Shown here: positions 8,904 through 34,389 of the stretch, in pieces
Layout of the letters: each line of letters opens with the position of its first letter
Numbering within the stretch: the stretch's first letter is position 1
DNA from: Hyphomicrobium sp. LHD-15
GTDB lineage: Bacteria > Pseudomonadota > Alphaproteobacteria > Rhizobiales > Hyphomicrobiaceae
Direction of reading: 5' to 3'
NCBI RefSeq assembly: GCF_031157355.1
Contig: NZ_JAVIFT010000002.1
Coordinates: 730,501 to 794,500 of the forward strand
Length of the DNA: 64,000 nt
Position numbers and translations under genes: made by a program
The notes under the pieces: model-generated
Told to the model about the DNA's origin: nothing
Databases searched by the model: none
Seen by the model: the letters and a program-made list of their open reading frames with translations, nothing else

Positions 8904-8959
8904 ACGCGAGCGTCTTCGCGCCCCGTACGCCGCCGTTTCCTTACAGTCCCCTTCCGGAA

Positions 8960-8994
8960 AGCCGCACCTCAACGAGGTGCGGCTTTTCTTTTTT
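8960..8994 (+). terminator. Intrinsic terminator after flagellin 1
   Basis: AGCCGCACCTC pairs perfectly with GAGGTGCGGCT across a three-base loop and is followed by TTTTCTTTTTT. It separates flagellin 1 from flagellin 2. Confidence 0.92.
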
Positions 8995-9166
8995 GCATTT
9001 TTCATCCGGCAGGCCGAGCCTTTGCGCTCCCAAAGGGGTCTCGGGATCCGGCTTAATATTCAAAATCTTACATCTTGATTCGTGTCCCCCGACCTAGCTT
9101 GCGCGGGGCTGTTCCTGTGGGCTCTTTGTGCCAGTTTGGGCCGATCTGGTGATTTTGAGGCACGAT

Positions 9167-9181
9167 TTAACGGTTCAGTAA
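9167..9181 (+). promoter_or_regulatory. Candidate CtrA-type site before flagellin 2
   Basis: TTAA-N7-GTAA lies 73 bases before the second flagellin start and matches seven of eight positions of the CtrA element. The stretch 8995-9254 holds no gene and must contain the promoter of this flagellin; I see no convincing sigma-28 or sigma-54 type promoter in it. Confidence 0.3.
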
Positions 9182-9254
9182 GCACCCCTGAGTATTTTCG
9201 ATTGGGAAAGCCCGACTTGGAAGCGGGACCATACGAGTCGGAAGAGGGACAGAT

Positions 9255-10178: not shown

Positions 10179-10212
10179 GCTCTACACGCTTACTCCCGCT
10201 TCCACGTTTAAG

Positions 10213-10242
10213 CCGCGCTCCTCTCCCGGGAGCGCGGTTTTT
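10213..10242 (+). terminator. Intrinsic terminator after flagellin 2
   Basis: CCGCGCTCC pairs with GGAGCGCGG across a seven-base loop and is followed by five T residues. Confidence 0.9.
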
Positions 10243-10342
10243 GCGTTTCAAAGGGCCTTCAGAACGCCTTCCCTCCGTATCGCAATCCCCACGCAAGGTT
10301 CACATTAAACAATGAGTCACGAATCGGGAATGGGGCGCTGGA

Positions 10343-19929: not shown

Positions 19930-19963
19930 CCGCCGCGCGTGATGTTTCCCAGAGAATGAAGCC

Positions 19964-19996
19964 CGCTTCGGATCGATAGGATCCGAAGCGTTTTTT
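19964..19996 (+). terminator. Intrinsic terminator after the lysozyme gene
   Basis: CGCTTCGGATC pairs perfectly with GATCCGAAGCG across GATAG and is followed by six T. The stem and loop resemble the hairpin modules found between cheW and cheY, so the terminator may derive from that repeat family. cheR converges from the other side and stops at 20000. Confidence 0.9.
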
Positions 19997-19999
19997 GTT

Positions 20000-20929: not shown

Positions 20930-21010
20930 GTTACGCTTCGCTTATTGTATTGGTTGGGCCGATCGCGGCGAACTCGACATCGCTATGTCTCGTGCGCGAG
21001 CGCAAAGACT

Positions 21011-21376
21011 TCACACCATGCCGATCTGTTCGAGCTTGGTGCGGATGATTTCCTGATCGAACGGCTTCATGATGTATTCGGTGGCGCCGGCTTCGAGGGC
21101 AGCGATGATCTTGTCGCGGGTGTTCTCGGTGGTGCAGAAAACAACCTGAGGCTGGTCGCCCTGCGGCATCTTGCGAAGCTTGTGCAAGAACTCAAGGCCG
21201 CTCATGACCGGCATGTTCCAGTCGAGCAGGATGAGATCAGGAAGGGCTATCTCGCATTGCTCAAGGGCGTGGGCGCCATCGCGCGCCTCAGTCACCTCGA
21301 AGCCGATGTTGTCGAGAATCTGCTTTGCGATCTTACGGATGAATGCCGAGTCATCCACCACGAGCGCTTTCTTCAT
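21011..21376 (-). CDS. cheY: Chemotaxis response regulator CheY
   Basis: A single receiver domain of 121 residues. The acidic pair is Asp8/Asp9, the phosphorylated residue is Asp52 in LILLDWNMPVMSG, and the TTEN and YIMKPF motifs supply the conserved Thr and Lys. Phospho-CheY binds the switch to change flagellar rotation, and CheA at 22056-24689 is the likely donor. ATG 21376 is chosen because AGGGTGAG precedes it; a longer in-frame start at 21397 would swallow that site. A 200-base gap to cheW is filled with three tandem hairpin repeats, unlike the tight spacing elsewhere in the operon. Confidence 0.96.
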   Translation of the reverse strand: MKKALVVDDSAFIRKIAKQILDNIGFEVTEARDGAHALEQCEIALPDLILLDWNMPVMSGLEFLHKLRKMPQGDQPQVVFCTTENTRDKIIAALEAGATEYIMKPFDQEIIRTKLEQIGMV

Positions 21377-21427
21377 TTTACTCACCCTGTTACGCAAGTT
21401 TACGCTTCCGTGCGGCCATGATGCACA

Positions 21428-21579
21428 CTTCAGGTTTGTAAAGCCTGAAGAAATCGCGGTCGCTTTAGTGAAATCGATGTTTCCCGCTTCGGGCTGATAA
21501 GGCCCGAAGCGATCATGGTGATCTTTAGTGAGACCGATGATTCACGCTTCAGGCTGGTAGGGCCTGAAGCGATCATGGT
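21428..21579. repeat. Three tandem 59-60 base palindromic modules between cheW and cheY
   Basis: Hairpins begin at 21428, 21487 and 21547, a period of 59-60 bases. Module 2 has arms CGCTTCGGGC/GCCCGAAGCG, module 3 has CGCTTCAGGC/GCCTGAAGCG, both with seven-base loops; the first is shorter (CTTCAGG/CCTGAAG). Modules 2 and 3 continue with GATCATGGT, and modules 1 and 2 are followed by a shared CTTTAGTGAAATCGATG-like linker. The G-to-A change between modules 2 and 3 is matched by C-to-T in the partner arm. The array abuts the cheW stop codon and ends about 50 bases before the cheY start. Related copies lie at 25.4, 28.7 and 33.3 kb. Confidence 0.9.
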
Positions 21580-22059
21580 CTAGTTCGCAAAGTCGAACAG
21601 AGCCCCGATGTTGAGAGCGGGGATCAGGAGGTTGCCGACCTTGTACAGGCCGGCCATGAAGCGAGAACGAGCCGGATCGAAGTGGGCAGGGATCTGCACC
21701 TTCATCGAGGCGTCGAGCGTCAGCACATCGCCGACTTCATCGACGATGAGCGCGAAGTTTTCGCCTTTGTGCTCGATGCCGATGGCGAGAGAGTTCTGGA
21801 ACTCGTCCACCGGGATTCCGAGGCGGCGACGCAAGCTCACCGCCGTCACGATCTTGCCGCGCAGATTGACGAGGCCGACGATGTCGATCGGTCCGAGCGG
21901 AATGGGCGTGACGCTGGTGATGCGGAAGATGGTCTGGGTGTGCAGCACGGAGAGACCGAAGGCCTCGCCGCCCGCAAACACCGTGAAATAACTTTCCTCG
22001 CCCGCGGTCGGAACGTCGGAGACCGACTGAACTGCTAAAGCGGCGCTGGTATTGCTCAT
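21580..22059 (-). CDS. cheW: Chemotaxis coupling protein CheW
   Basis: CheW links CheA to the chemoreceptors in the polar array. The 159-residue protein is one CheW domain after a short Ser/Ala leader: YFTVFAGGEAFGLSVLHTQT, TPIPLGPIDIVGLVNLRGKI and the EHKGENFALIVDEVGDVLTL segment are typical. Its start overlaps the cheA stop by four bases, so the two are translationally coupled. CheA itself carries two CheW-like domains, so this protein is the third such domain in the unit. Confidence 0.96.
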   Translation of the reverse strand: MSNTSAALAVQSVSDVPTAGEESYFTVFAGGEAFGLSVLHTQTIFRITSVTPIPLGPIDIVGLVNLRGKIVTAVSLRRRLGIPVDEFQNSLAIGIEHKGENFALIVDEVGDVLTLDASMKVQIPAHFDPARSRFMAGLYKVGNLLIPALNIGALFDFAN

Positions 22060-24689
22060 GCTGCAAGCTCCACGCTCATGGCCTTGGCGTCGGCGGCTGC
22101 ATCCAGTGCGTATGCGAGCGTTTCGAGAAGGGCATGACGGTCATGTTTGCTCAGAAGCGCGATCATGCCGTTTTCGGTGGCCGATCGCGACGAGCGGTTG
22201 GTCGGGTTGCGGCTCAGCCCGATCGCAGGAGTGCGGGCCGCATCCTTGCGATCCTTGAGAGCGCGCAGGAAATAAGGTGCCGACAGAGCCGGTGCATCAC
22301 CGTCGAGGATGACGGCATCGAACGAAGACATCTGGTTCAGAAGTTCGTTGATGTCCGCCGGGATCGTGACGGCGACAAGGTTATAGCCTGCTGCCGAGAT
22401 GGCGGGGCAGAGCATGTCGCGAACGAGCTGATCGTCGGCAGCGAACAGGATGCGCTGAGGCGCCGTGCTCGACTTGCCGGGCGGGTCAGCCATTCGGATG
22501 AAGTGTGATACGTCAACCAACTCGACAGCCTCGCCGCGAATTTCGGCGGAGCCGACCAGCTCGGAATTGGCGCTCGCGAGTTGGATCTCGAGCTTTTCTT
22601 CCAGAATGTCGACGATCTCGTCGGCCATGAGGCCGATTGAGCGGTTCTCGGTCGCGACGACAAGCACCGGATACGACGGCTTCGACATGTCGATCTCGGG
22701 AGAAATCGGAACGATCGGCATCAGGCGGCCCTGGAGCAGCACCATGAGGCGGCCGTCCGAGCTTTCGATGCGGCTGGTCTCGACCATCTCGATGCGCGAG
22801 ACGAGCGACAGCGGCAGAACTTTCGAAGCCCCGGCGCCGGCGCGGAACATGACAAGGCGACGGCGTTCGGCCGCGCTCTGGTCGCGAGCCTGATCGCGCT
22901 TCTTCTCGGTCGACTTCTCGATGCCGAGATTGCCGGCGATACCGGCGGGATCGAGAATGAGAACGACCGAGCCGTCACCGAGGATCGTGTGGCCGCTGAA
23001 CACCTTGAGGTGGGCCAGCGAAGCGCTGAGCGGCTTGACGACGATTTCCTGGATGTCGGCAACGCTGTCGACGATGATACAGAACGAATCCGTGCCGACG
23101 CGCATGACGACGGCGAGCTTGTCGCTCTCCTCCTTGGCGGCGTCAGCTCCGAGGCCAACGACCTCGCGAAGCTCTACGGCAGGAATAACCTCCTCGCGCA
23201 GCTTCAGAACAAGGGCGTTCTGGACGTCTTGGATGAGATCCTTGTAGTTTTTGCCGAGGCTGACGGCCTCGACGACCGAAGTCTGGGGAAGCGCGAAACG
23301 CTGGCCGGCGACTTCGATGATCAGAGCGGGCGCGATTGCGAGCGTCAGCGGGATGCGCAGCGAGAAGCGGCTGCCCTTGCCTTCGACCGACGATAGCGTA
23401 ACCGATCCACCGATGGCTTCGATGTTCGAGCGGACGACGTCCATGCCGACGCCGCGGCCGGAAACGTTGGAAACGACCTGCGCCGTCGAGAAGCCAGGCT
23501 CGAAGATGAAGCGGTAGATCTCCTCGTTGCTCATGTTACGGAGATCCTGCTCCGTAGTGAGGCCCTGCGAGAGGATCTTCTTCTTGATACGCTCGGTATC
23601 GAGGCCTTTGCCGTCGTCCGAGATGTCGATGGTGATCTGGCCGGCTTCGTGGGCGGCCGAAACGCGGATCTCGCCGCGCTCGGGCTTGCCCTTTGCCAGG
23701 CGCTCTTCCGGCCGTTCGATGCCATGATCGGCGCAGTTGCGGATCAGGTGAGTCAACGGGTCGCGGATGACTTCGATGAGCTGACGATCGAGCTCGGTGT
23801 CGGCACCCTCGGTGATGAGATCGATGCTCTTGCCGAGACTGGTCGAAAGCTCGCGCACGAGGCGCGGAAGGTTCGCGTAGATGCGGCCGACGGGCTGCAT
23901 GCGCGCCCGCATCACGGCATCCTGAAGATCGCTCGTGAGCGTCGAGAGGTGCTGCAGCGGTGTTTTGATGGAGTCGTCTTCGCGGTGGCGCGCAAGCTCA
24001 AGGAGCTGATTGCGGCTGAGGACGAGCTCGGACACGAGCTGCATCATGCGCTCGATCGTGTCGACGGAGACGCGGATGGATTCCTGGTTTGCGGTCGATC
24101 CGCCTTGGGCGCGGTTTTCCTTCGGCTGTGCGGCCGACGAAGCCTCGGACTTCGGGGCTTCCTTGGAAACGGCGACGGGTTCCGGAGCCGGTGCGGCGGC
24201 AACGGGATGGGCGGGTGCGGCTTCAACGACGGGAGCAGCGGTCACGACCGGGGCGGCCGCGACGGAAGGCTTCGTATCCGCTTCGGCCGACGCGGCAGCG
24301 GCGGCGGCTTCCGAGCCCGCAGCGTAGTAGGCTTCGAGCGCATCGATGATCGCGGCGTCGTCGCCTGGCGGCTCAGAGCCGTGAGCGCCGATTTCCTCGA
24401 TGATCGTCTTGATGCGGTCGATGGCAGCAAGAATGAGCGTCACGGAGTGCTGCGTCGGCGGAACGCCGTCGCGCAGCATGCCCATCACGGATTCGGCGGC
24501 GTGGCCGACGCGCTCTAAGCGCTCGAGGCCAAGGAAGCTCGACGTACCCTTGATGGTGTGAACAAGGCGGAAAATGCTGGTGATCAGAGATGCGTCGGAG
24601 GGGTTGCGCTCGAAATGCACGAGCTGTGTTTCCGCCCCTTCAATATGCTCCGTCGTTTCCGTCAGAAAATCTCGTAGTAGCTCGTCCAT
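22056..24689 (-). CDS. cheA: Chemotaxis histidine kinase CheA with C-terminal receiver
   Basis: A long CheA of 877 residues. Domains in order: HPt with His44 in RLVHTIKGTSS (1-105); an Ala/Pro/Glu-rich linker (about 125-200) where the CheY-binding domain would be, with no clear P2 fold; the dimer helices (about 203-268); the ATPase domain with LIRNCADHGIE, DISDDGKGLD and GRGVGMDVV (290-445); a CheW-like domain (446-585); a second CheW-like domain (about 610-735); and a receiver-like domain (745-865) with Asp752/Asp753, Asp796 and Lys848. The receiver may act as a phosphate sink or internal target. Its stop overlaps cheW. Confidence 0.96.
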   Translation of the reverse strand: MDELLRDFLTETTEHIEGAETQLVHFERNPSDASLITSIFRLVHTIKGTSSFLGLERLERVGHAAESVMGMLRDGVPPTQHSVTLILAAIDRIKTIIEEIGAHGSEPPGDDAAIIDALEAYYAAGSEAAAAAASAEADTKPSVAAAPVVTAAPVVEAAPAHPVAAAPAPEPVAVSKEAPKSEASSAAQPKENRAQGGSTANQESIRVSVDTIERMMQLVSELVLSRNQLLELARHREDDSIKTPLQHLSTLTSDLQDAVMRARMQPVGRIYANLPRLVRELSTSLGKSIDLITEGADTELDRQLIEVIRDPLTHLIRNCADHGIERPEERLAKGKPERGEIRVSAAHEAGQITIDISDDGKGLDTERIKKKILSQGLTTEQDLRNMSNEEIYRFIFEPGFSTAQVVSNVSGRGVGMDVVRSNIEAIGGSVTLSSVEGKGSRFSLRIPLTLAIAPALIIEVAGQRFALPQTSVVEAVSLGKNYKDLIQDVQNALVLKLREEVIPAVELREVVGLGADAAKEESDKLAVVMRVGTDSFCIIVDSVADIQEIVVKPLSASLAHLKVFSGHTILGDGSVVLILDPAGIAGNLGIEKSTEKKRDQARDQSAAERRRLVMFRAGAGASKVLPLSLVSRIEMVETSRIESSDGRLMVLLQGRLMPIVPISPEIDMSKPSYPVLVVATENRSIGLMADEIVDILEEKLEIQLASANSELVGSAEIRGEAVELVDVSHFIRMADPPGKSSTAPQRILFAADDQLVRDMLCPAISAAGYNLVAVTIPADINELLNQMSSFDAVILDGDAPALSAPYFLRALKDRKDAARTPAIGLSRNPTNRSSRSATENGMIALLSKHDRHALLETLAYALDAAADAKAMSVELAA

Positions 24690-24729
24690 TAGAAGTCCCC
24701 CTCGGCGTGTTACTTGCTCCCCAGCTTAT

Positions 24730-25278
24730 TTAGGCCACACACGGGATGAGACGATCAGCCATGCCCTGCGGAGATTCGGCCGGCATCTCTTTGCCATTGT
24801 TTACGAGGTCGGAGGCGCGGTTGAGGGCACTCCGGATCGCACACGATGCGTTCTCACAGAAATCGGAAACGCGCGAGGGATCGAGCTCGCCGTCGGGGCT
24901 GCGATGGGCGCGGATGACATCGATGCTGGCCATCGCCATGGCGTTGATGCCGTCGATGATGCCTTCGAATTCGCGACGGAAAGATTCGTCGAGACCTTCA
25001 TAGATCTCGAGCGCGCGGGCGCTGCCGGGAAGCTGCGACTTCGCGAAGTACTCGCGATATGTGACCGGGTTCCATTCGAGCAGCTCATCGAGCATTTCGG
25101 GAAGGAGGGTCGGCAGGTTCTCGATCAGGAGGAGAATTTCGTTGAAATGATTGAGGTAGTCGTTGGCGATCCCGGAGGCGGGATTCACGAGGCAAGCGGC
25201 GCGCTGTTCCAACGAGTCAACGTGTGCAGTTTCATTCTCAGCCATATTTTTTGCCGCCCGCTTTGAAGTTTCGTCCAT
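24730..25278 (-). CDS. Conserved hypothetical protein of the che operon
   Basis: About 182 residues from ATG 25278 (ATG 25245 and an earlier in-frame codon at 25299 are alternatives). It is acidic and helical, with LVNPASGIANDYLNHFNEIL and LIENLPTLLPEMLDELLEW as the most family-like stretches, and a second helical part (FRREFEGIIDGINAMAMASI). I know no assigned function. It lies directly upstream of cheA, 40 bases away on the same strand, so it is probably co-transcribed and may be a component of this chemotaxis system. It is not CheZ, CheD or CheX by any motif I can see. Confidence 0.7.
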   Translation of the reverse strand: MDETSKRAAKNMAENETAHVDSLEQRAACLVNPASGIANDYLNHFNEILLLIENLPTLLPEMLDELLEWNPVTYREYFAKSQLPGSARALEIYEGLDESFRREFEGIIDGINAMAMASIDVIRAHRSPDGELDPSRVSDFCENASCAIRSALNRASDLVNNGKEMPAESPQGMADRLIPCVA

Positions 25279-25413
25279 CCGTAAGCGACGATACTCCACG
25301 GCGATGACTAAAAATCAGTTACGAGACCCGCAAAAGGGCGCAATCTGATGAACATCGTGTCAATCTGGACGAGAGTGTTGTCCCTGCCGGAGAGGGCACA
25401 GCGCGGCCGTTAA

Positions 25414-25515
25414 AGCGAGTTTGCTTTTCTTTGAAACGCAATCCCGCTCTAGGTTTTTGATGAGACCGATGATTCACGCGATCTGCCCGATAAGGACAGA
25501 GGCGATCTTGGTCCA
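25414..25515. repeat. Dispersed two-hairpin repeat, copy near fliM
   Basis: The copy reads GCGAGTTTGCTTTTCTTTG, then CGCAATCCCGCTCTAGG, then GATGAGACCGATGATTCACG and a right-hand palindrome that is degraded here (GCGATCTTGGTCC at the end). It is clearly the same element as the copies at 28655 and 33240, on the same strand, and its right half is the module found beside cheY. It fills the 303-base gap between fliM and the che-operon hypothetical gene; I see nothing else in that gap. Confidence 0.85.
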
Positions 25516-25602
25516 GGAGAGCCCCGTCTGCCGTGACACGTAAATCGCTTGCGCCGACTCGCGCTTCGGGCGCGTGGCGTCGTTCGTTAAAAATGCGTAA
25601 AC

Positions 25603-26559
25603 TCAGCGCGCCGGGGAGCCGGAAATCAGATCCGACACAAGCTCTTTCTGGCGATCGATGGGCTGCTCGACAACGAGGGCGAACTGGCTCTTTGATTGTG
25701 CAAGTCGGCACCAGAAGATGCGTTCGTCCTGGCATTCGAGAGCGATCAGGCTCTTGGTGTCGGCATCGAGCCGCAGGATCTGGCCAGGCTCGAGGGCGGC
25801 GATCTCGTTTAGAGTCATTTCGGGGCCTTCGAGTACGCCGGTGAGCAGCATGGTGGACGAGGCGAGCCCATCCTGCATCTTCTTCTGCCATTCCGGATCG
25901 ACGCTGGTGCCGTCCAGGGCGCGGGTGCGCTCCAGCAACTTGCGGATCGGGTAGAGCGCAGATTGCGGGATGATCATGAACATGCGCCCGCCGTTGTCGA
26001 GGATCTGGAACAAGATCTGGACGGAGATGACAGGAACGTCGGTCTGGCCGAGAATCTGGAAGTCGAGCTTTGTCTCGAGCTTTTCGATGTCGAGGTTCAC
26101 GGGCGTGATCGGATTGAGAAGGTCCTCAAGCTCCGGTACCACGAGGCTGAACACGCTGCGGGCCAGGCGCGCTTCGAGCGACGTAAACGGACGATCGGCC
26201 TCGAAGGCCGGCATGCTTCCGTCGCCGCCGAATGCCGCGTCGATCAGAGAGAAAATGAAGCGACGGTCGAGACCAATGACGATCTTGCTGTCCCATTGGC
26301 GGCAGTAATAGATACCGGCGATGCTGTCTTCGTAGGATTCGAGCACGTCCCACGAATTGCCGCTTTCGACCTGGTTGACGAAAAACGACGACGGGACGTT
26401 GCAGTAATCGCGGAACCGCTCCGAGAGCGTGGTGACCAAGCGTTCGAGCACGCCCTTCAGAACGTGCAGGCGTTCGACCTCGAGCTTCGGCGGCTCGAGC
26501 AGTCTGTCGGTGCCGGGCTGGCCGCCAGATTCTCGGATCTCTGCGTATTCTTCCCGCAT
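25603..26559 (-). CDS. fliM: Flagellar motor switch protein FliM
   Basis: A 318-residue switch protein. The middle domain (KGVLERLVTTLSERF, IAGIYYCRQWDSKIVIGLDR, AFEADRPFTSLEARLARSVF) and the C-terminal surface-presentation domain (EIAALEPGQILRLDADTKSL) support FliM, which forms the C ring with FliG and FliN. The usual N-terminal CheY-binding motif (consensus near SQDEIDALL) is not visible; the protein begins MREEYAEIRESGGQ. It starts on the last base of the fliG stop (TAATG), so the two are coupled. FliN is not in the window. Confidence 0.88.
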   Translation of the reverse strand: MREEYAEIRESGGQPGTDRLLEPPKLEVERLHVLKGVLERLVTTLSERFRDYCNVPSSFFVNQVESGNSWDVLESYEDSIAGIYYCRQWDSKIVIGLDRRFIFSLIDAAFGGDGSMPAFEADRPFTSLEARLARSVFSLVVPELEDLLNPITPVNLDIEKLETKLDFQILGQTDVPVISVQILFQILDNGGRMFMIIPQSALYPIRKLLERTRALDGTSVDPEWQKKMQDGLASSTMLLTGVLEGPEMTLNEIAALEPGQILRLDADTKSLIALECQDERIFWCRLAQSKSQFALVVEQPIDRQKELVSDLISGSPAR

Positions 26560-27614
26560 TACTCGTCCTCCTCCGTCGTGCCGATTTCAATGATGCCTTT
26601 TTCGATCATTTCCATGGCGGCATCGGCAATGGCGCGGCGTGCCTTCTGAATTTCCTTCGCACTCGGCTTCTTGCCGGTTGCGATTTCCTGCTCGATCATA
26701 CGGCGGGCGCGTGCGGGTGTGGCTTCCAGAATGAGATCGATCATGCGCGGTTCGGCGCCGAAGAGCGCTGCGATCGTGCGATCGGCGGGTACGACGTCGA
26801 ACAGCGTGACGAGCGCCGGCTGAGACAGGCGGAGCAGGTCGTCGAACGTGAAGAGCAGGCCGCGCACGACTTCCGCCTCCTTGGGGCGGTGCTCATCGAG
26901 ATCGGTCAGGATCTCGTCCATCTGCTTGCGATCCATCTTGTTGATGATATCGGCGAGACGCGCGTGGATGGTCGGGCCGGTGTTCTTGGCGCTCTTGTAA
27001 AGCAGCTCTTCCTTCACGGCGCCTTCGAGCAGAAGGATCGGTTTTTCGAGCACGATCTTGAGCGCCAGCATGCGCCGCATGATCTCGTTGCGCAGCGGCG
27101 TCGGCAGCATCTTGAGGGTGGCGGCGGCGTAAGCAGGCGGCGTGCGCGACAGCACGAGGGCCGAGACCTGCGGATGCTCCTTGGCAAGGTATTGGGCGGT
27201 GCTGAGCTCGGGCACTTCGCCGAGCTTGATCCAGATCGACTGCAGCGACTTCGAGCGCACCTGAGACATGATCTCGGCGATCTGCTCGGGCGGCACCACG
27301 CCGGACAAGAGCTGCTCGACCTCGTTGGCGGTGGCGACGAGATCGCCGCCGGTCCGCAAGCTCATGGCAAATTCCTCGATCAGCGTATCGAGGGTTTGCT
27401 TGGTGACGGCGCCGAGGTCGGTGGCCGTCTGCGCGATGAGTTTGATGTCGTCTTCGTCGAAATGCTTCAGGAGGCGCGAGGCCACCTTCTTATCCATGCA
27501 GAGCAGGAGAGCGGCGACCTTCTTGGGGCCGGTCAGCTCCTGCTCGGATGGCTCATCGCCTCTGCCTGATCGTCTTTCGGCGTTCGCCTGGCTCATCGGT
27601 CGCTCAAGGGCCAT
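26559..27614 (-). CDS. fliG: Flagellar motor switch protein FliG
   Basis: FliG is the torque-generating part of the C ring, binding FliF above and FliM below. The 351-residue product has the N-terminal domain (ELTGPKKVAALLLCMDKKVA), the middle EHPQVSALVLSRTPPAYAAA (the EHPQ motif that contacts FliM), and the C-terminal torque helix region (FTFDDLLRLSQPALVTLFDV followed by DRTIAALFGAEPRMI). Two in-frame ATGs at 27614 and 27596 are possible; neither has a strong ribosome binding site. It is the first gene of the minus-strand switch/chemotaxis unit. Confidence 0.94.
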   Translation of the reverse strand: MALERPMSQANAERRSGRGDEPSEQELTGPKKVAALLLCMDKKVASRLLKHFDEDDIKLIAQTATDLGAVTKQTLDTLIEEFAMSLRTGGDLVATANEVEQLLSGVVPPEQIAEIMSQVRSKSLQSIWIKLGEVPELSTAQYLAKEHPQVSALVLSRTPPAYAAATLKMLPTPLRNEIMRRMLALKIVLEKPILLLEGAVKEELLYKSAKNTGPTIHARLADIINKMDRKQMDEILTDLDEHRPKEAEVVRGLLFTFDDLLRLSQPALVTLFDVVPADRTIAALFGAEPRMIDLILEATPARARRMIEQEIATGKKPSAKEIQKARRAIADAAMEMIEKGIIEIGTTEEDE

Positions 27615-27830
27615 CGTTGAAGGCGCCGTTTGCCCACGTACCGCGGCGGCTGCTCTGTTGCTACAACCCCTTGCGGCACAACGCGTCGGACGTCTTTGTG
27701 CCAGACGGAAGCCTAAGCTAAAGACTTCGTCGATTTGCCTTGAGCGAAGCTTGTGCTTTGGGGTGCGCTACAACTCTGGTGAGCCTTTCTTACGCGGGCT
27801 GTGGCCCGGCAACCTCCACCTGTGCAGGGC

Positions 27831-28430
27831 TCAGCTAAAGCGCTGCCAGGTTACGGTGACTTTCGTTCCCACCGGCACGCGCGGATAGAGGTCCAACACG
27901 TCCTCGTTGTACATGCGAATGCAGCCCTTGGAGGCGGCGGTGCCGATGGTCCAGGGTGCGTCGGTTCCGTGGATGCGGTAGGCCGACGAGCCGAGATACA
28001 GCGCGCGCACGCCGAGCGGGTTCATCGGATGGCCGCCCGGAACCCAGCTCGGAAGGCGCGGGTTCTCGCGCAGCATGGTCGGGGTCGGCGTCCATGAGGG
28101 GTTTACGCGCTTGTCGGAAACGCTCGTCACGCCCGCCCAGCGGCTCTGTTCTCGCGGAACGGCGATCGGGTAGCTGATCGCCTCGCCGGGCTTGTGAATC
28201 CAGTAAAGCCTTTTATCGCCGAAGGAGACGATGATTTGGCGCGGCTGATATTTCGAGCTGAAGCCGACGACGGAGCGCGATCCGCCGTCCCACAGAAACG
28301 AGAACAGGTCTTGCGCCGAAGCGCGCGACGGCGCGAGCGTGACAAGGGCCAGCGCCATTGCGGCCAGCATCGTGAAGTTCAAGTGGCGCGACGCGCGGAT
28401 GGCTTGGCCTCTGGAACACGCGATCGTCAT
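27831..28430 (-). CDS. L,D-transpeptidase (YkuD domain)
   Basis: A 199-residue exported enzyme predicted to form 3-3 cross-links in peptidoglycan or attach proteins to it. After a signal peptide (AAMALALVTLAPSRASA) the catalytic domain runs from QIIVSFGDKRLYWIHKPGEA to the active-site region YRIHGTDAPWTIGTAASKGC followed by IRMYNEDV, with the histidine and the nucleophilic cysteine in place. ATG 28430 is chosen because GGGGGAG lies just before it; the open frame extends to 28562 without support. It stands alone between fliG and a repeat copy. Confidence 0.92.
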   Translation of the reverse strand: MTIACSRGQAIRASRHLNFTMLAAMALALVTLAPSRASAQDLFSFLWDGGSRSVVGFSSKYQPRQIIVSFGDKRLYWIHKPGEAISYPIAVPREQSRWAGVTSVSDKRVNPSWTPTPTMLRENPRLPSWVPGGHPMNPLGVRALYLGSSAYRIHGTDAPWTIGTAASKGCIRMYNEDVLDLYPRVPVGTKVTVTWQRFS

Positions 28431-28654
28431 GCGAAAGGTCTCCCCCGTCGGTGTTTCGATGAAATGTCTGCCCGTCTTGTCTGGCGGGGATGGCGTGCGC
28501 AAAGCTCCCCGCATCCGACGCGATTTGCAAGATAGGGTGGCTTTGAGGCCATTTACGTGCAAGCTCGGGCTATTCCGTATTTGGCGTTAACAGCCGTCCC
28601 CGTCGTTGCATATTTGCATCTTTCGGGCGGTCTGTCAGCTTGGCGCCTGCACTC

Positions 28655-28733
28655 GAGCGTGTTTGCTTTTCTTCGGATCGCAACCCCGCTCTAGGTTCTT
28701 GATGAGACCGATGATTCACGCTTCGGTCTAGAG
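28655..28733. repeat. Dispersed two-hairpin repeat, truncated copy
   Basis: The left half is complete (GAGCGTGTTTGCTTTTCTTC to CCCCGCTCTAGG, arms GAGCG/CGCTC) and the shared GATGAGACCGATGATTCACG follows, but the right palindrome stops after CTTCGGTCTAGAGC. The copy ends across the stop codon of the DUF4186 gene at 28728-28730. No other feature is seen in the gap 28431-28727. Confidence 0.85.
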
Positions 28734-29114
28734 CAGGCGCGGCTCCTGCGGCTCGTGACCGGCGTTGGTTTGCCGGGTGAGCCAGCGTTCGATTACCGCA
28801 ACGGTATAGTCTACTTCAGTATTTTCCATAGCCCGATCGTTCGGGATGCCGTGCCATTTGGTGAGGCAGCCGCGGCAGCACGTAGCGGTTGCGTGCTGGG
28901 CGATGAACACCGGATGTCCCCGAAACGGCGTCTGTTTTCCATCGTTGGGCGGTTTCGCCGGCGCTAAGCGCTTGCCGATGAAGTGGCGTGCATGATCGCG
29001 CACGGCATCGACACCCTTGCTTGCGAGGTAGTCGCGTTCGCGAGGCCCCAGCACGAACCGCTGCCGGAACGGCGATTTCGCGAGGCGGGCCAGGATGTCG
29101 TCGATGTCGTTCAT
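28728..29114 (-). CDS. DUF4186 family protein
   Basis: A 128-residue protein. The stretch SPFRQRFVLGPRERDYLASK, then AKPPNDGKQTPFRGHPVFIA, QHATATCCRGCLTKWHGIP and VIERWLTRQT matches the DUF4186 family as I know it, a widespread family of unknown function. The conserved Cys-Cys-x-x-Cys cluster with nearby His residues could bind a metal; this is inference. ATG 29114 is used because it sits just before the family start; the frame is open further upstream only by overlap with the next gene. Its stop codon lies in the edge of a repeat copy. Confidence 0.85.
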   Translation of the reverse strand: MNDIDDILARLAKSPFRQRFVLGPRERDYLASKGVDAVRDHARHFIGKRLAPAKPPNDGKQTPFRGHPVFIAQHATATCCRGCLTKWHGIPNDRAMENTEVDYTVAVIERWLTRQTNAGHEPQEPRLL

Positions 29115-29178
29115 GATGGACCGTGCATCTCGCACTCGCGGCCAGGGTTGGATGATGTGTCCGCAGTCGGCTCGGAAC

Positions 29179-31032
29179 TCACGCGCTTTGCGCGGCGCAC
29201 CAAGCCTGCCACGATCTTCGATACGCCTGCTCCATGGCACGCGTCAGGCTCTCGATATCGCGAAGCTGTGATTGCTCGCATCTCAAACGCAGACCGGCTC
29301 GAACTTCTGCGAGGCCTTGCAGATCGCTCGCTGCTTTCTTTGCTTTGGCGATGTAGGCGGCATCGGATTCGGTGATCCAATCGTGAAGGCCGAGGGCGCC
29401 GAGCAGGCTTGCGCCGAGGCGGCCGACCGGCGGGCGATCGACAAGGGTCAGAACCGGGGCGCCCATCCAAAGCGCTTCGAGCGACGTGGTTCCGGCATTA
29501 TGCGGAAAGGGATCGAGCGCGATGTCGATCTCGTTGTAGCCCGCGAGAACCGCTGCGTGGTTCGGGGTGTCGCGCAGGTCGAGTCGCTCCGAGCCGATGC
29601 CGTGGGCGAGGAAGCGCTGTCTCACGTCCTCCTGGGTGCTGGCCGCTCCGAAAGGCTTGTTGTCGAGGCGCAAGCGGCTTCCGGGACAGGCCTGAAGGAT
29701 TTCGGACCAGACCCGGACGACGCGATCGTTAAGGCGGATTGGGCGCCCGAAATAGCCGAATGTGAGGTGGCCGTTCTCAAGGGCGGGGAGTGGGCCGACG
29801 GGCGGCATGGTCCGCGGCGGCTCGTAAGCCACGAACGGGCGTCCCAAGGAAACCGGCCGCTCGCTGATATGCTGCTCCGTGCCCGGCGGCAGCAGGATAT
29901 CGTCGGCGATCAGTCCGTCCATGGCGCGGAGGCCGGTGGTGGTTCCGGTTCCGATGACGTACGAGAGCTGCACGGGTGCGGGCTTTCGCGCGAAGACAAG
30001 CTGGCGATTTCCGGGCGAATGACCGGCGAGATCGATCAGCACGTCAATCTCGTCGTCCTGGATCAGCTGCGCAACGCGATCGTCGGGCAGGCCGGTCGTC
30101 TGCACCCATTTCGAAAGCGCCTGGAATTTCCGGCTGGTTTCGTCGACGTGGCGGACATCGGCGTAGCAGGTAATATCGAACGCGTTGCGGTCGTGGCGGG
30201 CCATCAGCGGCAGCATGAAGACAGCGACCACGTGATTGCAGAGATCGGGCGAAACATAGCCGATCTTGAGTGGGCGATCTGGGTTCGGTGCGTTGGTGTG
30301 TTTTACGCGCGGGGCGAAGGATTTTGCGTAGGTGGCGTCGTAGGCACCGGACGCTGCGCGCAAATCGGCCGCGGACATGTCCGGATCATAGGTCAGGCAG
30401 ATCAGGAAGCTCGAATGAAGCTCCGGGTTCGGGTCTCGCGCGAGTGCTGAGCCATAGACCTGTTTTGCGTCCTTGAAGCGCCCGAGATTGGCGAGCGCGC
30501 TGCCGAGATTGCGCACGGCGCCGGCGTGATATCCGCGCTCCAATGCTTTACGGAACGAGATGGCTGCGGCCATGAGGTCGCCCTGCCGGAATTGAGCGTT
30601 GCCAAGCGTGACGTAAACCTGGAGCGTATCAGCGCCATCGGCGATGGCCCGCAGAGCCATGGCGTGCGCTGCGTCGTGGTTTCCGAGATCGACGAGAACG
30701 TTCGCATAGTTTGCGGCGGCATCTGCAAACTTGGGGTCGAGCGCAAGCGCGCTTTCGTAGGCGGCGGCGGCTTCGGTGAGTTTCGCGGTGGCCCGATAGG
30801 ACGCGCCAAGATTGGTCCAGGCTGATGGCGTAGGATTTATGGCGATCGAACGCTTCAGCGCATCGACCGCGCCGTCAAAGTCGTGCCGCTGGTAGAACAG
30901 GATCCCAAGTCCGAACAGGGCGACATCGGCATGCCGACCTTCGGCCAGGCATTTGCGCGCCAGCGTCTCCGCTTCGTTTTGTTTTCCTGCTCTCAGTAGG
31001 GAGGTGAGAAGGACCGCATCATTGTCCGTCAT
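29179..31032 (-). CDS. TPR protein with SPINDLY/OGT-type (GT41) glycosyltransferase domain
   Basis: A 617-residue protein with N-terminal tetratricopeptide repeats (residues about 1-210; e.g. AWTNLGASYRATAKLTEAAA) and a GT41 catalytic domain from about 245: LKIGYVSPDLCNHVVAVFML, DVLIDLAGHSPGNRQLVFAR, GTGTTTGLRAMDGLIADDIL, and the donor-site region DIALDPFPHNAGTTSLEALW with MGAPVLTL. Such enzymes transfer a sugar to Ser/Thr of proteins bound by the repeats. In Caulobacter the similar FlmG glycosylates flagellins. Three flagellin genes lie 18-23 kb away in this window, making flagellin a plausible target. No nonulosonic acid pathway genes are seen here. Confidence 0.9.
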   Translation of the reverse strand: MTDNDAVLLTSLLRAGKQNEAETLARKCLAEGRHADVALFGLGILFYQRHDFDGAVDALKRSIAINPTPSAWTNLGASYRATAKLTEAAAAYESALALDPKFADAAANYANVLVDLGNHDAAHAMALRAIADGADTLQVYVTLGNAQFRQGDLMAAAISFRKALERGYHAGAVRNLGSALANLGRFKDAKQVYGSALARDPNPELHSSFLICLTYDPDMSAADLRAASGAYDATYAKSFAPRVKHTNAPNPDRPLKIGYVSPDLCNHVVAVFMLPLMARHDRNAFDITCYADVRHVDETSRKFQALSKWVQTTGLPDDRVAQLIQDDEIDVLIDLAGHSPGNRQLVFARKPAPVQLSYVIGTGTTTGLRAMDGLIADDILLPPGTEQHISERPVSLGRPFVAYEPPRTMPPVGPLPALENGHLTFGYFGRPIRLNDRVVRVWSEILQACPGSRLRLDNKPFGAASTQEDVRQRFLAHGIGSERLDLRDTPNHAAVLAGYNEIDIALDPFPHNAGTTSLEALWMGAPVLTLVDRPPVGRLGASLLGALGLHDWITESDAAYIAKAKKAASDLQGLAEVRAGLRLRCEQSQLRDIESLTRAMEQAYRRSWQAWCAAQSA

Positions 31033-31125
31033 GGGCAGCAGCGTTGGTCCCTTCCGGTGAGTGAACGAGACGGGGAATCACTTTTAATTCCTTAGCATTC
31101 TTCACATTGTGACCCAGAGGTTTTT

Positions 31126-31148
31126 CTTCGACAGCGGAGCTGTCGAAG
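31126..31148. other. Perfect inverted repeat between the GT41 gene and the sensor kinase
   Basis: CTTCGACAGC and GCTGTCGAAG pair perfectly across three bases. Both flanking genes are read on the minus strand. On that strand the hairpin is followed by AAAAA rather than T, so it is not an intrinsic terminator in the needed direction; it could be an operator or a transcript-end stem. Confidence 0.5.
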
Positions 31149-31165
31149 AGCTGCCGACACGCCTT

Positions 31166-32542
31166 TCATGAGCGCTGGGGAAACGTGATCGAGACCTTGA
31201 GGCCGGGCCCGTTGTCGGTCAGATCGACGGTGGCGCCGTGCAGATCGGTGATCGCCCGGACGAGGCTCAAGCCAAGGCCGTGACCCGGCGTCGTGCGCTC
31301 GCGTTCAAGGCGGTAAAACCTGCGGAATACGTTTTCGTGCTCGTCGCCGGGGATGCCGGGGCCGTTGTCGGCCACTGTGAGTATCGGCCTGCGTTGAGAG
31401 CCCGAAAGTGCGAGTTGGATGGAGGTTCCAGGCGGGCAATGCTGAATGACGTTCTCGATCAGATTGGCCACGAGCTGAACCAGCAGCTCGTGATCGCCCC
31501 GGATCGTCAGCGCGGAAGCCTGTGCCTCGTCCCAGACGAGCTTGAAACCACTGTCTTCGATGACGGGGGCGTAGGCTTCGCTGGCGTCACCGAGCACGCG
31601 CCGCAAGTCGATGTCGACGAAGCGTGCGCGTCTGTCGCCTGCTTCGAGCTGGCCGATGTTCAACAGCGCTTCGAAGGTCGAGACGATACTATCCACCTCC
31701 TCGATGGCATGTTCCAAGACTTGCCGGATGCCTGGATTTTCGGCTTCTGCCTCGCAGGCACTTTCGAGCTGCTGGCGCAGGCGCGTCATCGGCCGCTTGA
31801 GATCGTGGGCGATATCGGTCGAGGACTGGTTGGCGTTCAGGACCAAGCGTTCGAGCTGGGTCAGCATGGCGTTGATGCGTTCGCTGACCTCATCGAGATC
31901 ATGCTGCGGGAGCTTGATCGGGACCCGCTTGTCGAGGGCGCCGGCGGATACGGCGGAGAGCGTCTGAGCGATGGAATCGATGCGTTTCTGGGCGCCGCGC
32001 GCAAGATAGATACCGGAGCCGACGCCGAGCACGACGGTGGCGAGCAGGCCCCAGCCGAGGCTGCGCATCAGAATGAGGCGAGCCTGCCGGACTTCCCGGT
32101 CGCTGCGGCCGATCAGCAGCATGCCCTTGGAGACCGGCGTCCAGAGCGCGAAGAAGCGGTCGCGCCCGGTTCCATTGCCGGCAATGTCAGGAAGGTGGGA
32201 GCGCTCCAAGGCGCGCCAGCCTTCGAACGGGCGTTCGGTGCGGATGTTTCCGGCCACGACCGTGCCGTTGGCGTCCTCGACGGCAAAGATGCTGTCGGTA
32301 TCGCGGACGGATTCGGCTTCGTCGGTGACGACGCTGACCAACTCGTCGAACCCGTAGCGGCGGTCGATGGCGAGGAGCGCATCTCGTGTATGGACGATGC
32401 GGGCGCGGACGCCTTCCTCCAGCCCGTCGGCAAGATTGGCGATCAAAACCGCGAACAGCACCGTGACGCTGACCGTAATGATCAACGTGAAGGCGACGGC
32501 AGAGCGGACTTGCGTACGCCGGAAAAGATCACGGATTGTCAT
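31166..32542 (-). CDS. Two-component sensor histidine kinase
   Basis: A 458-residue membrane kinase. Two membrane helices (about 15-37 and 163-182) flank a periplasmic sensor of about 125 residues; a HAMP domain follows (about 183-236), then the phosphoacceptor His246 in STDIAHDLKRPMTRL and an ATPase domain with LVANLIENVIQH, VADNGPGIPG and GHGLGLSLVRAITDLHGATV. The stimulus is unknown. Its start overlaps the end of the response regulator gene by 14 bases, so the pair is one operon. The HDLKRP form of the H-box occurs in a subgroup of alphaproteobacterial kinases. Confidence 0.95.
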   Translation of the reverse strand: MTIRDLFRRTQVRSAVAFTLIITVSVTVLFAVLIANLADGLEEGVRARIVHTRDALLAIDRRYGFDELVSVVTDEAESVRDTDSIFAVEDANGTVVAGNIRTERPFEGWRALERSHLPDIAGNGTGRDRFFALWTPVSKGMLLIGRSDREVRQARLILMRSLGWGLLATVVLGVGSGIYLARGAQKRIDSIAQTLSAVSAGALDKRVPIKLPQHDLDEVSERINAMLTQLERLVLNANQSSTDIAHDLKRPMTRLRQQLESACEAEAENPGIRQVLEHAIEEVDSIVSTFEALLNIGQLEAGDRRARFVDIDLRRVLGDASEAYAPVIEDSGFKLVWDEAQASALTIRGDHELLVQLVANLIENVIQHCPPGTSIQLALSGSQRRPILTVADNGPGIPGDEHENVFRRFYRLERERTTPGHGLGLSLVRAITDLHGATVDLTDNGPGLKVSITFPQRS

Positions 32543-33212
32543 TGATTGAATAACCGCTGCCGCGAACGGTATGGATCAGCGGCTTTGCAAAGGGCCGGTC
32601 TATTTTTGCGCGCAGGCGCGAGATGTGCGTTTCGACGACGCTGGTGCGCGGGTCGAAGTGGAAGCCCCAGACGCGCTCGAGCAGCATGGTGCGCGTGACG
32701 ACGCGTCCTTTGTTGCGCATAAGCGTTTCGAGCAGAACGAACTCCTTGGGTTGGAGATCTATGCGTTCCTGTCCGCGTTTTACCGTGCGGCTCGCGATAT
32801 CGAGTTCCAAGTCTCCGGCGCGAAGGACGTCGCCGTCGGAGCGCATCGGCGCGCGCCGTCCGAGCGCGTTGACGCGAGCAAGAAGCTCGGCGAAGGCAAA
32901 CGGTTTGACGAGGTAGTCGTCACCGCCGACGTCCAACCCCTGGACCCGGTCGTTGACGCCACCGAGCGAGGTCAGGAACAGGATGGATACGCGGCTGCCA
33001 GCAGTTCGCAGCGTGCGCGCGAGGGAGAGCCCGTCGATGCCGGGAAGCATGCGGTCCAGGATGACCAGGTCGTAGTTTTCGCGGATGGCAAGCGCGAGAC
33101 CGTCTTTACCGTCCGATACGACATCGATGGTGTGTCCCGCCTGGACCAGTCCATTCGACACGTATCGGGCAGTCTCCTTGTCATCCTCGACCAGAAGTAG
33201 CCGCATGCGCAC
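32529..33212 (-). CDS. OmpR/PhoB family response regulator
   Basis: A 227-residue regulator with a receiver domain (Glu9/Asp10/Asp11 region, phosphorylated Asp53 in LVILDRMLPGIDG, Lys in YLVKPF) and a C-terminal winged-helix DNA-binding domain (LQPKEFVLLETLMRNKGRVV, then TSVVETHISRLRAKIDRPF and TVRGSGYSI). It is the partner of the kinase that follows. The targets are unknown. A long repeat copy lies just upstream (33240-33400) in what should be its promoter region. Confidence 0.96.
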   Translation of the reverse strand: MRMRLLLVEDDKETARYVSNGLVQAGHTIDVVSDGKDGLALAIRENYDLVILDRMLPGIDGLSLARTLRTAGSRVSILFLTSLGGVNDRVQGLDVGGDDYLVKPFAFAELLARVNALGRRAPMRSDGDVLRAGDLELDIASRTVKRGQERIDLQPKEFVLLETLMRNKGRVVTRTMLLERVWGFHFDPRTSVVETHISRLRAKIDRPFAKPLIHTVRGSGYSINDNP

Positions 33213-33239
33213 TCCCTCTCCCCTGTTTTTACGACCTTA

Positions 33240-33400
33240 GAGCGTGTTTGCTTTTCTTTGAATCGCAATCCCCGCTCTAGGTTCATGAAGAGGCCGATGA
33301 TTCACGCTTCGGCCTTTTCCGGCGCTGCCGATTCACGCCGCGCCCGATAGGGGCCGCGACGATCGGAGCGGCGCGTGGGTCCGAAGCGATCATGGTTTAG
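33240..33400. repeat. Dispersed two-hairpin repeat, longest copy
   Basis: The left part (GAGCGTGTTTGCTTTTCTTT to CCCCGCTCTAGG) forms a hairpin with arms TAGAGCG/CGCTCTA, counting the bases just before it. The right part opens with CGCTTCGG at 33305 and closes with CCGAAGCG at 33381, followed by the ATCATGGT tail known from the cheY array. The 68 bases between the arms include a second, degraded module beginning GATTCACG. It lies between the response regulator start (33212) and the small RNA candidate. Confidence 0.85.
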
Positions 33401-33489
33401 CAGCGTTTTGAGAAGCTGGCCTAGATGTTTGATTTGGAGCGCAAATCTAGGTGGGACATGCTTCGATTTTGAATGCGGGGCCGGTCGCA

Positions 33490-33650
33490 GATAAAATTAG
33501 AGCCCGAACACCGCATTGGCGCTCGGGCTCCGGATACCCAGCAAGGGTGGGGTACCGTTCAGGGCAGCACGCGAGGGGGGACCATTGTTCAGGAGCTGGC
33601 TGTGGCACACCCAAGTGGGTGCCCACACTCTGTGACGCCCTGAAAATGAT
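33490..33650 (-). ncRNA. Candidate structured small RNA
   Basis: No gene is seen in 33401-33828, but the minus strand folds well. In its 5'-3' order: TTCAGGGC (33637-33644) pairs with GCCCTGAA (33558-33565) around a strong inner hairpin (33601-33627, stem TGTGG/CCACA plus CACCC/GGGTG); then GGTACCC pairs with GGGTATCC (33532-33556, one wobble); then GAGCCCGA pairs with TCGGGCTC (33500-33530), followed by TAATTTTATC, which resembles an intrinsic terminator. A TAAGAT lies just before the proposed 5' end. I could not match it to 6S, SRP, tmRNA or RNase P RNA. Confidence 0.5.
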
Positions 33651-33828
33651 CTTAGGCAGGCATTCTTACCCGCGCATGTCGGATACCTTACAATTCCCGT
33701 AAGCTCGCAATTGATCCCATGTTCGACTTTGGCGCTCCGTTAGGTTGCCTCGGGTTTTGCTCGGGGGTGGAGTTGCGGGTCCGGCCTCCACACCGCGGCC
33801 AACCTCCCTCGGGCAAGACCTAGTGCTG

Positions 33829-34389
33829 CTAAGCGGCAGGCGGAGCAGCTGCCATATCGGCCGGCATCTCGACTTCTCCGGCGCCTGCCGCCGTTGCGGC
33901 CGTGTCGTCGGAGGTTTCCGCAAAGCGCGAGATTACGAAGCCAATCAACGCAAGGATCAGGATCAACGGCAGGTTGCGGCCAACGCCACGTGCGATGCCG
34001 GGCAGCGCCATCGGTGCAGCCGATGACAGAAAAGCTCGAACCTCCGGTGTCAGGAGGTCGGATGCAAGGAGATCCGCGCTTTCGTCGGCCGTTTGGCCTG
34101 CATCTCCTGATGCTGCGGCAGCTGACGGCTCGGCTGAGGTTGCGCTCTCGGCGGGGCGGGCTTCCGTATCGACGGCTGCCATGGTTACGAGCCCGATCAC
34201 TCCGAACAGCGCGGCCATGATGGAGTAACCGGCGACCGCGCCGTACATGTCGACGAGCTTCACAGTCAGTGCGGCGGTGGCGAAGCCGCCGGCGATCAGA
34301 AGGGGGATCGCAACGGTGACGCGGCCGACGTATTTGGCGACGACCGAGTCGATCTTGTTTTCGGCGCGCTTAAAAAGGCCTTGTAACAT
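33829..34389 (-). CDS. Hypothetical membrane protein
   Basis: A 186-residue protein with about three membrane segments: two near the N-terminus (AIPLLIAGGFATAALTVKLV and YSIMAALFGVIGLVTMAAV) and one near the C-terminus (NLPLILILALIGFVISRFA). A Ser/Ala/Asp-rich stretch separates them, and the tail is Ala/Pro-rich. I do not recognise a named family. The upstream neighbour on the same strand is a DUF883 protein 56 bases away, and a membrane transporter precedes that, so the three may be co-transcribed as an envelope-related group. Confidence 0.7.
   Translation of the reverse strand: MLQGLFKRAENKIDSVVAKYVGRVTVAIPLLIAGGFATAALTVKLVDMYGAVAGYSIMAALFGVIGLVTMAAVDTEARPAESATSAEPSAAAASGDAGQTADESADLLASDLLTPEVRAFLSSAAPMALPGIARGVGRNLPLILILALIGFVISRFAETSDDTAATAAGAGEVEMPADMAAAPPAA

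What the first reader, a model, noticed from the sequence alone, without database searches (positions are those of the whole stretch)
25414..33400. A family of intergenic two-hairpin repeats
Copies at 25414, 28655 and 33240 share a left half (GCGTGTTTGCTTTTCTTT then CGCAATCCCGCTCTAGG, with arms GAGCG/CGCTC) and a right half beginning GATGAGACCGATGATTCACG that carries the same palindrome as the cheY array. All are on the same strand and only in gaps; one copy ends across a stop codon. The copies differ in length: one is truncated, one has its right hairpin opened by a 68-base insert. This looks like a mobile or amplifying palindromic element comparable to REP or RUP/MITE elements, in a form I do not recognise.
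Basis: seen in the sequence. Interest (0 to 1): 0.75.

Follow-up and report, generated by a model that had tools for sequence, protein, structure and literature searches.

The report
Hairpin repeats pointing one way chromosome-wide
A budding bacterium (Hyphomicrobium) carries about a hundred copies of a small, spreading hairpin DNA element in the gaps between genes, and nearly all copies point the same way around the whole circular chromosome, even where DNA copying runs the other way, which no process I know of would produce.

Summary
Confirmed and extended. The copies belong to a dispersed, modular, intergenic palindromic family: 129 model matches (103 sites) in this 4.29 Mb genome, and matches in 8 of 8 genomes of the genus sample, own included (5-129 each). 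Ends carry CTAG/TAG and overlap a neighbour's stop codon at 38 of 113 sites. Of 18 occupied orthologous gaps between two species, 15 are filled in one only. No Y1 transposase (RAYT) was found in the 8 genomes, so REP membership is not met; MITE-like is the best label, mobiliser unknown. The surprise is polarity: 103 of 103 sites here and 26 of 26 in G007 agree with their contig, through the parS/origin region; in one-contig G006 68 of 78 are plus, 34 in each replichore. In the same DNA a KOPS-like octamer flips between replichores (48/0 versus 0/36 in held G000 stretches). Another palindromic repeat is mixed (14 hits). Exceptions exist: 9 minus sites in G006, one discordant pair in H. sulfonivorans. 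The cause is unproven; my mechanism is inference.

The parts
25409..25516 (+). Full copy, modules A+B without C; intergenic between a gene called at 24730-25245(-) and fliM 25603-26559(-)
   Evidence: R1 model 103.3 bits, E 3.9e-25; upper B stem changed on both sides relative to the consensus
28651..28731 (+). Copy with A, linker and 5' arm of B; outer half of B apparently deleted, TCTAG kept; its CTA is the stop codon of the DUF4186 gene 28728-29114(-)
   Evidence: model match 28651-28773, 59.6 bits
33236..33400 (+). Copy A+B with module C nested in the loop of B; intergenic between response regulator 32529-33206(-) and a gene called at 33829-34389(-)
   Evidence: R1 model 87.9 bits, E 4.4e-21; C seen in other copies
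33315..33377 (+). Module C (approximate limits), a nested hairpin sharing GATTCACGC with B
   Evidence: sequence; other copies; fold of another B+C copy
21466..21519 (+). Hairpin B unit 1 beside cheY, partly degenerate
   Evidence: genome hit C2:751917-752023
21520..21583 (+). Hairpin B unit 2; its end CTAG overlaps the stop of the gene called at 21580-22059(-)
   Evidence: 61.7 bits, E 3.2e-14 for 21520-21580; gene call

Best explanation
A genus-restricted family of small non-autonomous mobile elements (MITE-like, about 105 bp, about 160 bp with C). Two to three hairpins stand between CTAG/TAG ends. SHOWN: modular hairpin anatomy with compensatory changes; intergenic placement; stop-codon overlap at a third of sites; mostly lineage-specific occupancy; species dialects of A with conserved B; one polarity round the chromosome in three species, with some exceptions in one of them. 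INFERRED: an unidentified enzyme acting in trans recognises the conserved bulged hairpin B and the terminal CTAG, inserts copies at CTAG/TAG sites (rare in genes, commoner at gene ends), and inserts or keeps them in one orientation because it acts on one particular strand of DNA during some process that runs one way round the chromosome. The last step is the least certain; the sequences show the polarity but not its cause.
For: Copy number and orientation. Hairpins: 95.4% of stem cells paired, 7 pairs changed on both sides (0 of 500 shuffles reach it), slid controls 26-39% paired; single-strand DNA fold of one copy z -10.3 and -9.2 on its two strands. Dialects: A differs between G000 and G006, B and C do not. 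Occupancy: 127 orthologous gaps G000/G006: 109 empty in both, 10 only G000, 5 only G006, 3 both; junctions at CTAG/TAG and stop codons, e.g. C8:134602 and C6:116872. CTAG outside elements is 0.17 per kb in called genes and 1.85 per kb elsewhere in held G000 DNA. Ends: CTAGAGCRTGATTGC against CTAGACCATGATCGC (read by eye). Polarity: 103 of 103 sites agree with their contig; chromosomes collinear with C3, C5, C6 flipped (137 of 166 reciprocal best hits agree in strand); parS clusters mark the origin; the KOPS-like octamer flips while repeats do not.
Against: No transposase could be tied to the family: PF01797 absent from 8 of 8 genomes; 0 of 8 genes lying between two neighbouring copies in held DNA is a transposase, six further such intervals were not held. 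A target duplication is only suggested; CTAG may be part of the element, and exact CTAG at the right end is seen in only 35 of 68 (G006) and 19 of 60 (G000) matches. In G006 9 of 78 sites are minus, 7 of them in replichore 2; the two that could be checked sit in gene order that is not inverted. H. sulfonivorans has two copies of opposite sense about 30 kb apart on one contig (L139, L147). Fifteen one-sided gaps could be losses rather than gains. Ordinary DDE transposition gives no polarity.
Confidence: 0.55

Rival explanations
1. Polarity is functional and selected: the elements are a directional chromosome signal, read by a DNA-translocating or segregation machine in one sense round the circle; insertions in the wrong sense are lost.
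For: 0 exceptions in 103 sites (G000) and 26 sites (G007); + copies also in segments inverted between species (C1:1446220, C1:1453044, C2:823653, G006:346753); nearly invariant unpaired bulge in B.
Against: Known directional signals (KOPS and the like) flip at ori and ter, as the octamer here does. Matches vary from 5 to 129 per genome, odd for an essential signal. G006 tolerates 9 minus sites.
Confidence: 0.22
2. Inheritance plus avoidance: an ancestor happened to carry one polarity in each replichore, and copies in the opposite sense are purged because recombination between inverted copies causes inversions; equal polarity of the two replichores is a one-in-two accident.
For: The polarity relative to the sense of the parS cluster is the same in G000, G006 and G007, as inheritance predicts; at least one site is shared by position (C2:505853 / 725415).
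Against: Another palindromic repeat in G006 is mixed within replichores (1+/4- and 4+/5-). Most occupied gaps are not shared. Copies are short and imperfect.
Confidence: 0.15
3. A REP/BIME system mobilised by a RAYT (TnpA_REP) on lagging-strand single-stranded DNA.
For: Bulged hairpin of REP-like size, tandem and mosaic arrays, intergenic placement; the kind of strand-specific chemistry that could give polarity (PMC6006769, passages seen).
Against: No PF01797 hit in 8 of 8 genomes, while the control rings in 6 of 14; no GTAG/GTGG foot in the consensus; lagging-strand targeting would flip at ori and ter.
Confidence: 0.05
4. A transcribed 3'-end structure (terminator or RNA stabiliser) kept for its effect on mRNA.
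For: Sits at gene ends: neighbour's stop overlapped at 38 of 113 sites; 34 of 105 intergenic sites are in convergent gaps against 126 of 877 gaps of 60 nt or more in the same kind of stretches, and 12 of 105 in divergent gaps against 183 of 877.
Against: No Rfam match; G.T and A.C mismatches in stems are about equal (51/37 and 35/29), so the RNA of neither strand is clearly favoured; co-oriented gaps show no clear sense preference (35 antisense to 24 sense); transcription cannot set a chromosome-wide sense.
Confidence: 0.08

Closest known systems
Br-REP1 / Br-REP2 of Bradyrhizobium (PMC5082802, abstract and passages seen)
   Same: Alphaproteobacterial, intergenic, several palindromes per element, in 3'-UTRs and a convergent gap, copy number varying between species
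   Different: Different sequences; chromosome-wide polarity, nested hairpin and CTAG ends are not in the passages I saw
REP / BIME with RAYT (PMC6006769, passages seen)
   Same: Bulged hairpins, intergenic, mosaic and tandem arrays
   Different: No RAYT in the genus sample, no GTAG/GTGG foot, larger element
Bacterial MITEs such as RUP and Correia elements (recalled)
   Same: About 100-165 bp, no gene, inverted terminal repeats, short TA-containing target, gene-end placement
   Different: No parent insertion sequence found; internal hairpins; one polarity
RIME and A/B/C mosaic elements of rhizobia; CIR repeats of Caulobacter (both recalled)
   Same: Two-palindrome intergenic mosaics; GANTC sites occur here in B and C
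   Different: Sequence relation not tested; a GANTC in the A part is inconsistent (27 of 52 G006 and 13 of 46 G000 full copies)
KOPS-type polar octamers (recalled)
   Same: Strong strand bias along the chromosome
   Different: KOPS-like GCGCTGGG flips between replichores in the same DNA; this element does not

Membership tests
REP/BIME with RAYT | Cognate Y1 (HUH) transposase in the genome | tested here: not met
   PF01797: 0 of 8 genomes; control 6 of 14
REP/BIME with RAYT | GTAG/GTGG foot 5' of the hairpin | tested here: not met
   By eye on the consensus: bases 5' of the B stem read GATGA (stem from GACC); ends are CTAG
REP/BIME with RAYT | Many intergenic copies | tested here: met
   103 sites; 1 of 115 examined sites mostly in genes
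MITE | Short, no coding capacity, many copies | tested here: met
   about 105-165 bp, 129 matches; coding capacity judged from length only
MITE | Terminal inverted repeats | tested here: met
   CTAGAGCRTGATTGC / CTAGACCATGATCGC, 12-13 of 15 by eye; no separate statistical test
MITE | Target-site duplication | tested here: inconclusive
   CTAG/TAG at both ends of many copies; empty sites compatible but too diverged
MITE | Parent transposase with the same ends | tested here: inconclusive
   Facing end pairs 450-3500 bp apart in held DNA were listed but not each examined; 8 genes flanked by copies are not transposases; whole genomes not searched for other transposase families
KOPS/architecture-imparting motif | Strand bias flips at ori and ter | tested here: not met
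   G000 B core R1 21/0, R2 23/0; octamer R1 48/0, R2 0/36
Known structured RNA | Rfam match | tested here: not met
   window 21000-34000, E<=1: none
RIME / CIR repeats | Sequence homology to the published consensus | not tested
   No consensus at hand; both recalled only

The most novel reading that the evidence does not exclude
In Hyphomicrobium some DNA process runs in one direction right round the circular chromosome, across both ori and ter (for example a unidirectional or rolling-circle mode used in part of the replication rounds, or strand-specific chromosome transfer linked to budding), and these elements record it by inserting in, or being kept in, that one polarity. The unequal strand bias of the two replichores (mean third-position replication component +0.11 to +0.13 in one and -0.02 to +0.02 in the other, in three species) would be a second trace of the same process.
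Probability: 0.13. Interest if true: 0.93.

Novelty: new variant of a known kind. Interest (0 to 1): 0.72.

Why it matters
Strand biases in bacterial chromosomes are explained by replication, transcription or FtsK-type translocation; none of these gives one sense through both ori and ter. A mobile repeat family that does so, in several species and mostly at positions not shared between two of them, has no standard explanation and offers about a hundred natural markers per genome with which to look for the cause. It is also a compact new family for studying hairpin mobility without a RAYT.

Tried and rejected
Replichore-linked orientation: my first reading, rejected when G006 (one contig) showed plus in both halves and G000/G007 showed no change at parS. 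Simple unidirectional replication: not supported, because the KOPS-like octamer flips normally. RAYT: rejected. RNA family: none. CcrM/GANTC as the defining feature: weak. Left-half pattern in 148 other genomes: no match at up to 3 mismatches, including 7 congeners, because that pattern is this species' dialect of A; the covariance model then hit 8 of 8 genomes of the genus. My first pattern for the left half was written with one base too many.

Withdrawn on re-check: from the partial set I had a 27-to-9 excess of antisense over sense in co-oriented gaps (p 0.004); with the larger set it is 35 to 24, so I no longer claim it. Not strengthened: in G006 the second A dialect has 5 minus of 24 full copies and the rest 3 of 28.

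Skew control: four 30 kb stretches of E. coli K-12 gave replication components -0.037, -0.002 (right) and -0.067, -0.138 (left): noisy and itself offset, so I give the skew asymmetry little weight; an outgroup control could not be fetched. In the octamer scan some words lean the same way in both replichores, but mildly (e.g. CCCGCGAG 17/74 and 40/79).

Loci of other species (48, up to 8 kb): polarity in the G000 frame 10 plus and 1 minus of 11 placed; in the G006 frame 10 plus, 4 minus, 1 mixed of 15 placed (overlapping sets; one locus, L143, gives opposite answers because its segment is inverted between the frames; L114 was a tie in the script's motif count and is minus by the pattern); the other loci could not be placed. 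Within, 6 of 7 contigs with two or more loci are of one sense; the H. sulfonivorans contig is not.

Paper searches: in the titles and abstract starts shown nothing describes such polarity or this family; the library lacks most subscription journals. Passages only were seen of PMC3110155, PMC6650430, PMC6006769, PMC5082802. The H. neptunium passages describe segregation that starts at the origin and assume two forks.
Full report
OBSERVATION. The window is G000:C2:730501-794500 of a 4.29 Mb, 10-contig genome. BLAST with a stretch around copy 1 gave 46 matches (40 of 108 candidates scored). A covariance model built from 19 A+B copies gave 129 matches at E<=0.01 (150 of 2015 candidates scored, so perhaps a lower bound). 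Merging hits closer than 400 nt gives 103 sites.

ANATOMY. Module A is a hairpin, CTAGAGCGTGATTGC-loop-GCAATCaCGCTCTAG in this species. A linker ending GATGA leads to module B, GACCGATGATTCACGCTTCgGaC-tgatag-GtCcGAAGCGATCATGGTCTAG, with a TCA bulge in the 5' arm. Module C, a hairpin that also contains GATTCACGC, can sit once or twice in the loop of B. B may be repeated in tandem. Pairing is supported by compensatory change: 95.4% of cells paired, 7 pairs with double changes against a shuffled mean of 2.0 (0 of 500 reach it), slid controls 26-39%. The structure was derived from the same 19 sequences, so the paired percentage leans its way; the double changes are the better evidence. G.T and A.C mismatches are about equal (51/37 in G006, 35/29 in G000), so I see a DNA palindrome rather than an RNA fold.

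PLACEMENT. With my own simple gene caller, 1 of 115 sites in held DNA is more than half inside genes, against 91.2 (sd 4.0) by random placement. Of 113 sites with neighbours on both sides, 38 overlap a neighbour's stop codon by 1-6 nt and 8 overlap a called gene by more than 25 nt. Flanking genes of the other 105, in the element's frame: convergent 34, co-oriented antisense 35, co-oriented sense 24, divergent 12; gaps of 60 nt or more in the 20 kb stretches: 126, 286, 282 and 183 of 877. Convergent gaps are thus favoured and divergent ones avoided; a sense preference is not clear.

DISTRIBUTION. The B pattern in one genome for each of 84,980 species hit 48 stretches, all from records named Hyphomicrobium or one Hyphomicrobiales MAG (exact matches to one pattern, so diverged relatives would be missed). 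The model hits 8 of 8 genomes of the genus sample (129, 99, 63, 56, 37, 30, 27, 5). G006, one contig of 3,653,837 bp, is probably H. nitrativorans NL23 (recalled from its size).

TURNOVER. Dialects of A differ: many G006 copies have one of two other A types, while B and C read the same. Between G000 and G006, 127 orthologous gaps in held stretches, many of them chosen around copies, were compared: 109 empty in both, 10 filled only in G000, 5 only in G006, 3 in both. Of the three, one matches in position (C2:505853), one does not (C2:442112), one was not examined. The 10 G000-only copies all have the common polarity; of the 5 G006-only ones 3 have it and 2 do not. Gains are the simpler reading; losses are not excluded.

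POLARITY. In G000 all 103 sites agree with their contig: C1 38, C2 34, C4 5, C7 1, C8 8 plus; C3 2, C5 8, C6 7 minus; two plus sites also carry an antisense hit to the palindromic A. Flipping C3, C5 and C6 makes gene strands agree with G006 in 137 of 166 reciprocal best hits (C5 had none, C3 and C7 one each), so for the well-covered contigs the polarity is one for the chromosome. In G007 8 of 8 sites on C2 are plus and 18 of 18 on C3 minus. In G006 68 are plus, 9 minus, 1 both. parS-like clusters place the origin at G006 418-422 kb (one lone further site at 2,422,533), G000 C2 190-195 kb and G007 C3 1380-1385 kb. Repeats do not change sense there: G000 C2 has 3 sites before and 31 after, G007 C3 8 and 10. 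By replichore G006 has 34+/2- and 34+/7- (+1 both); replichore 2 alone differs from 1:1 with p = 2.5e-5. The sense relative to the asymmetric parS variants is the same in the three species. In H. zavarzinii (G004), G002 and RBC040 (G001) the hits are consistent within every contig except one weak antisense hit overlapping a plus copy.

CONTROL IN THE SAME DNA. With repeats masked, the strongest flipping octamer is GCGCTGGG: replichore 1, 109 versus 4; replichore 2, 2 versus 79. Per genome, in held stretches: G000 48/0 and 0/36, G006 63/3 and 5/63. The core of B: G000 21/0 and 23/0, G006 19/1 and 27/3. In G000 C1 all 28 octamers in the stretches examined are on minus while all 38 sites are plus; on C2 past the origin all 25 are plus, as are the repeats. 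C6, which seems to hold the terminus, has octamers of both senses without a clean switch, but 7 of 7 repeats in one sense. A different palindromic repeat in G006 is mixed, 1/4 and 4/5. The rule belongs to this element.

EXCEPTIONS. Of the 9 minus sites of G006, two could be checked and sit in non-inverted gene order (3307406 and 2367036). Seven lie in replichore 2, four of them at 2.25-2.95 Mb next to the terminus. In other species' loci most placed ones are plus, but minus cases occur, two of them the two placed loci of strain D-2; local inversions cannot be told from true minus insertions there. H. sulfonivorans has two copies of opposite sense about 30 kb apart.

MECHANISM. Terminal inverted repeats, CTAG/TAG ends, no gene and lineage-specific occupancy point to a MITE-like element moved in trans. 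CTAG is about ten times rarer per kb inside called genes than outside in held G000 DNA, so CTAG targeting alone would favour gaps and stop codons. Neither DDE transposition nor lagging-strand targeting explains the polarity: the first is blind to it, the second flips at ori and ter. Something must distinguish the two strands in the same sense on both arms. I therefore infer strand-specific insertion or retention tied to a process that runs one way round the chromosome, and say plainly that this step is not shown. The replication part of third-position GC skew averages +0.115, +0.133 and +0.105 in replichore 1 and +0.009, -0.016 and +0.022 in replichore 2 of G000, G006 and G007 (18+19, 20+20, 11+9 stretches); this fits such a process, but my E. 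coli control was poor.

VERDICT. A real, genus-wide, recently spreading repeat family; a new family of a known kind (intergenic palindromic mosaics/MITEs) with one property, chromosome-wide polarity through ori and ter, that I could not match to anything in the searches listed.

Noticed in passing
G000, G006, G007 chromosomes: Octamer GCGCTGGG is a very strong KOPS-like polar motif that flips at ori and near ter; a candidate FtsK-orienting sequence of Hyphomicrobium.
   Followed up: partly
G000, G006, G007 stretches: The two replichores have unequal strand bias: third-position replication component about +0.11 to +0.13 in one and about 0 in the other, in three species. No outgroup control.
   Followed up: partly
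G006:C1:418-422k, G000:C2:190.5-195.2k, G007:C3:1380-1385k: parS-like clusters are mostly an asymmetric variant TGTTTCACGTGAATCx, in one sense within each cluster, which contains a GANTC site and the half GATTCACG also found in modules B and C.
   Followed up: no
G006, e.g. near 346753 and 725415: A second dispersed palindromic repeat (CATCCCGGCCAAG...GCAGAGCCGGGA) in mixed orientations.
   Followed up: partly
window 19964-19991: A terminator-like hairpin followed by a T run whose stem and loop resemble the top of hairpin B; weak model hit 19911-20002, 31.8 bits.
   Followed up: no
window 7980-11263: Three tandem diverged copies (65-81% identical over the reported pieces) of a unit of about 1.1-1.3 kb.
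   Followed up: no
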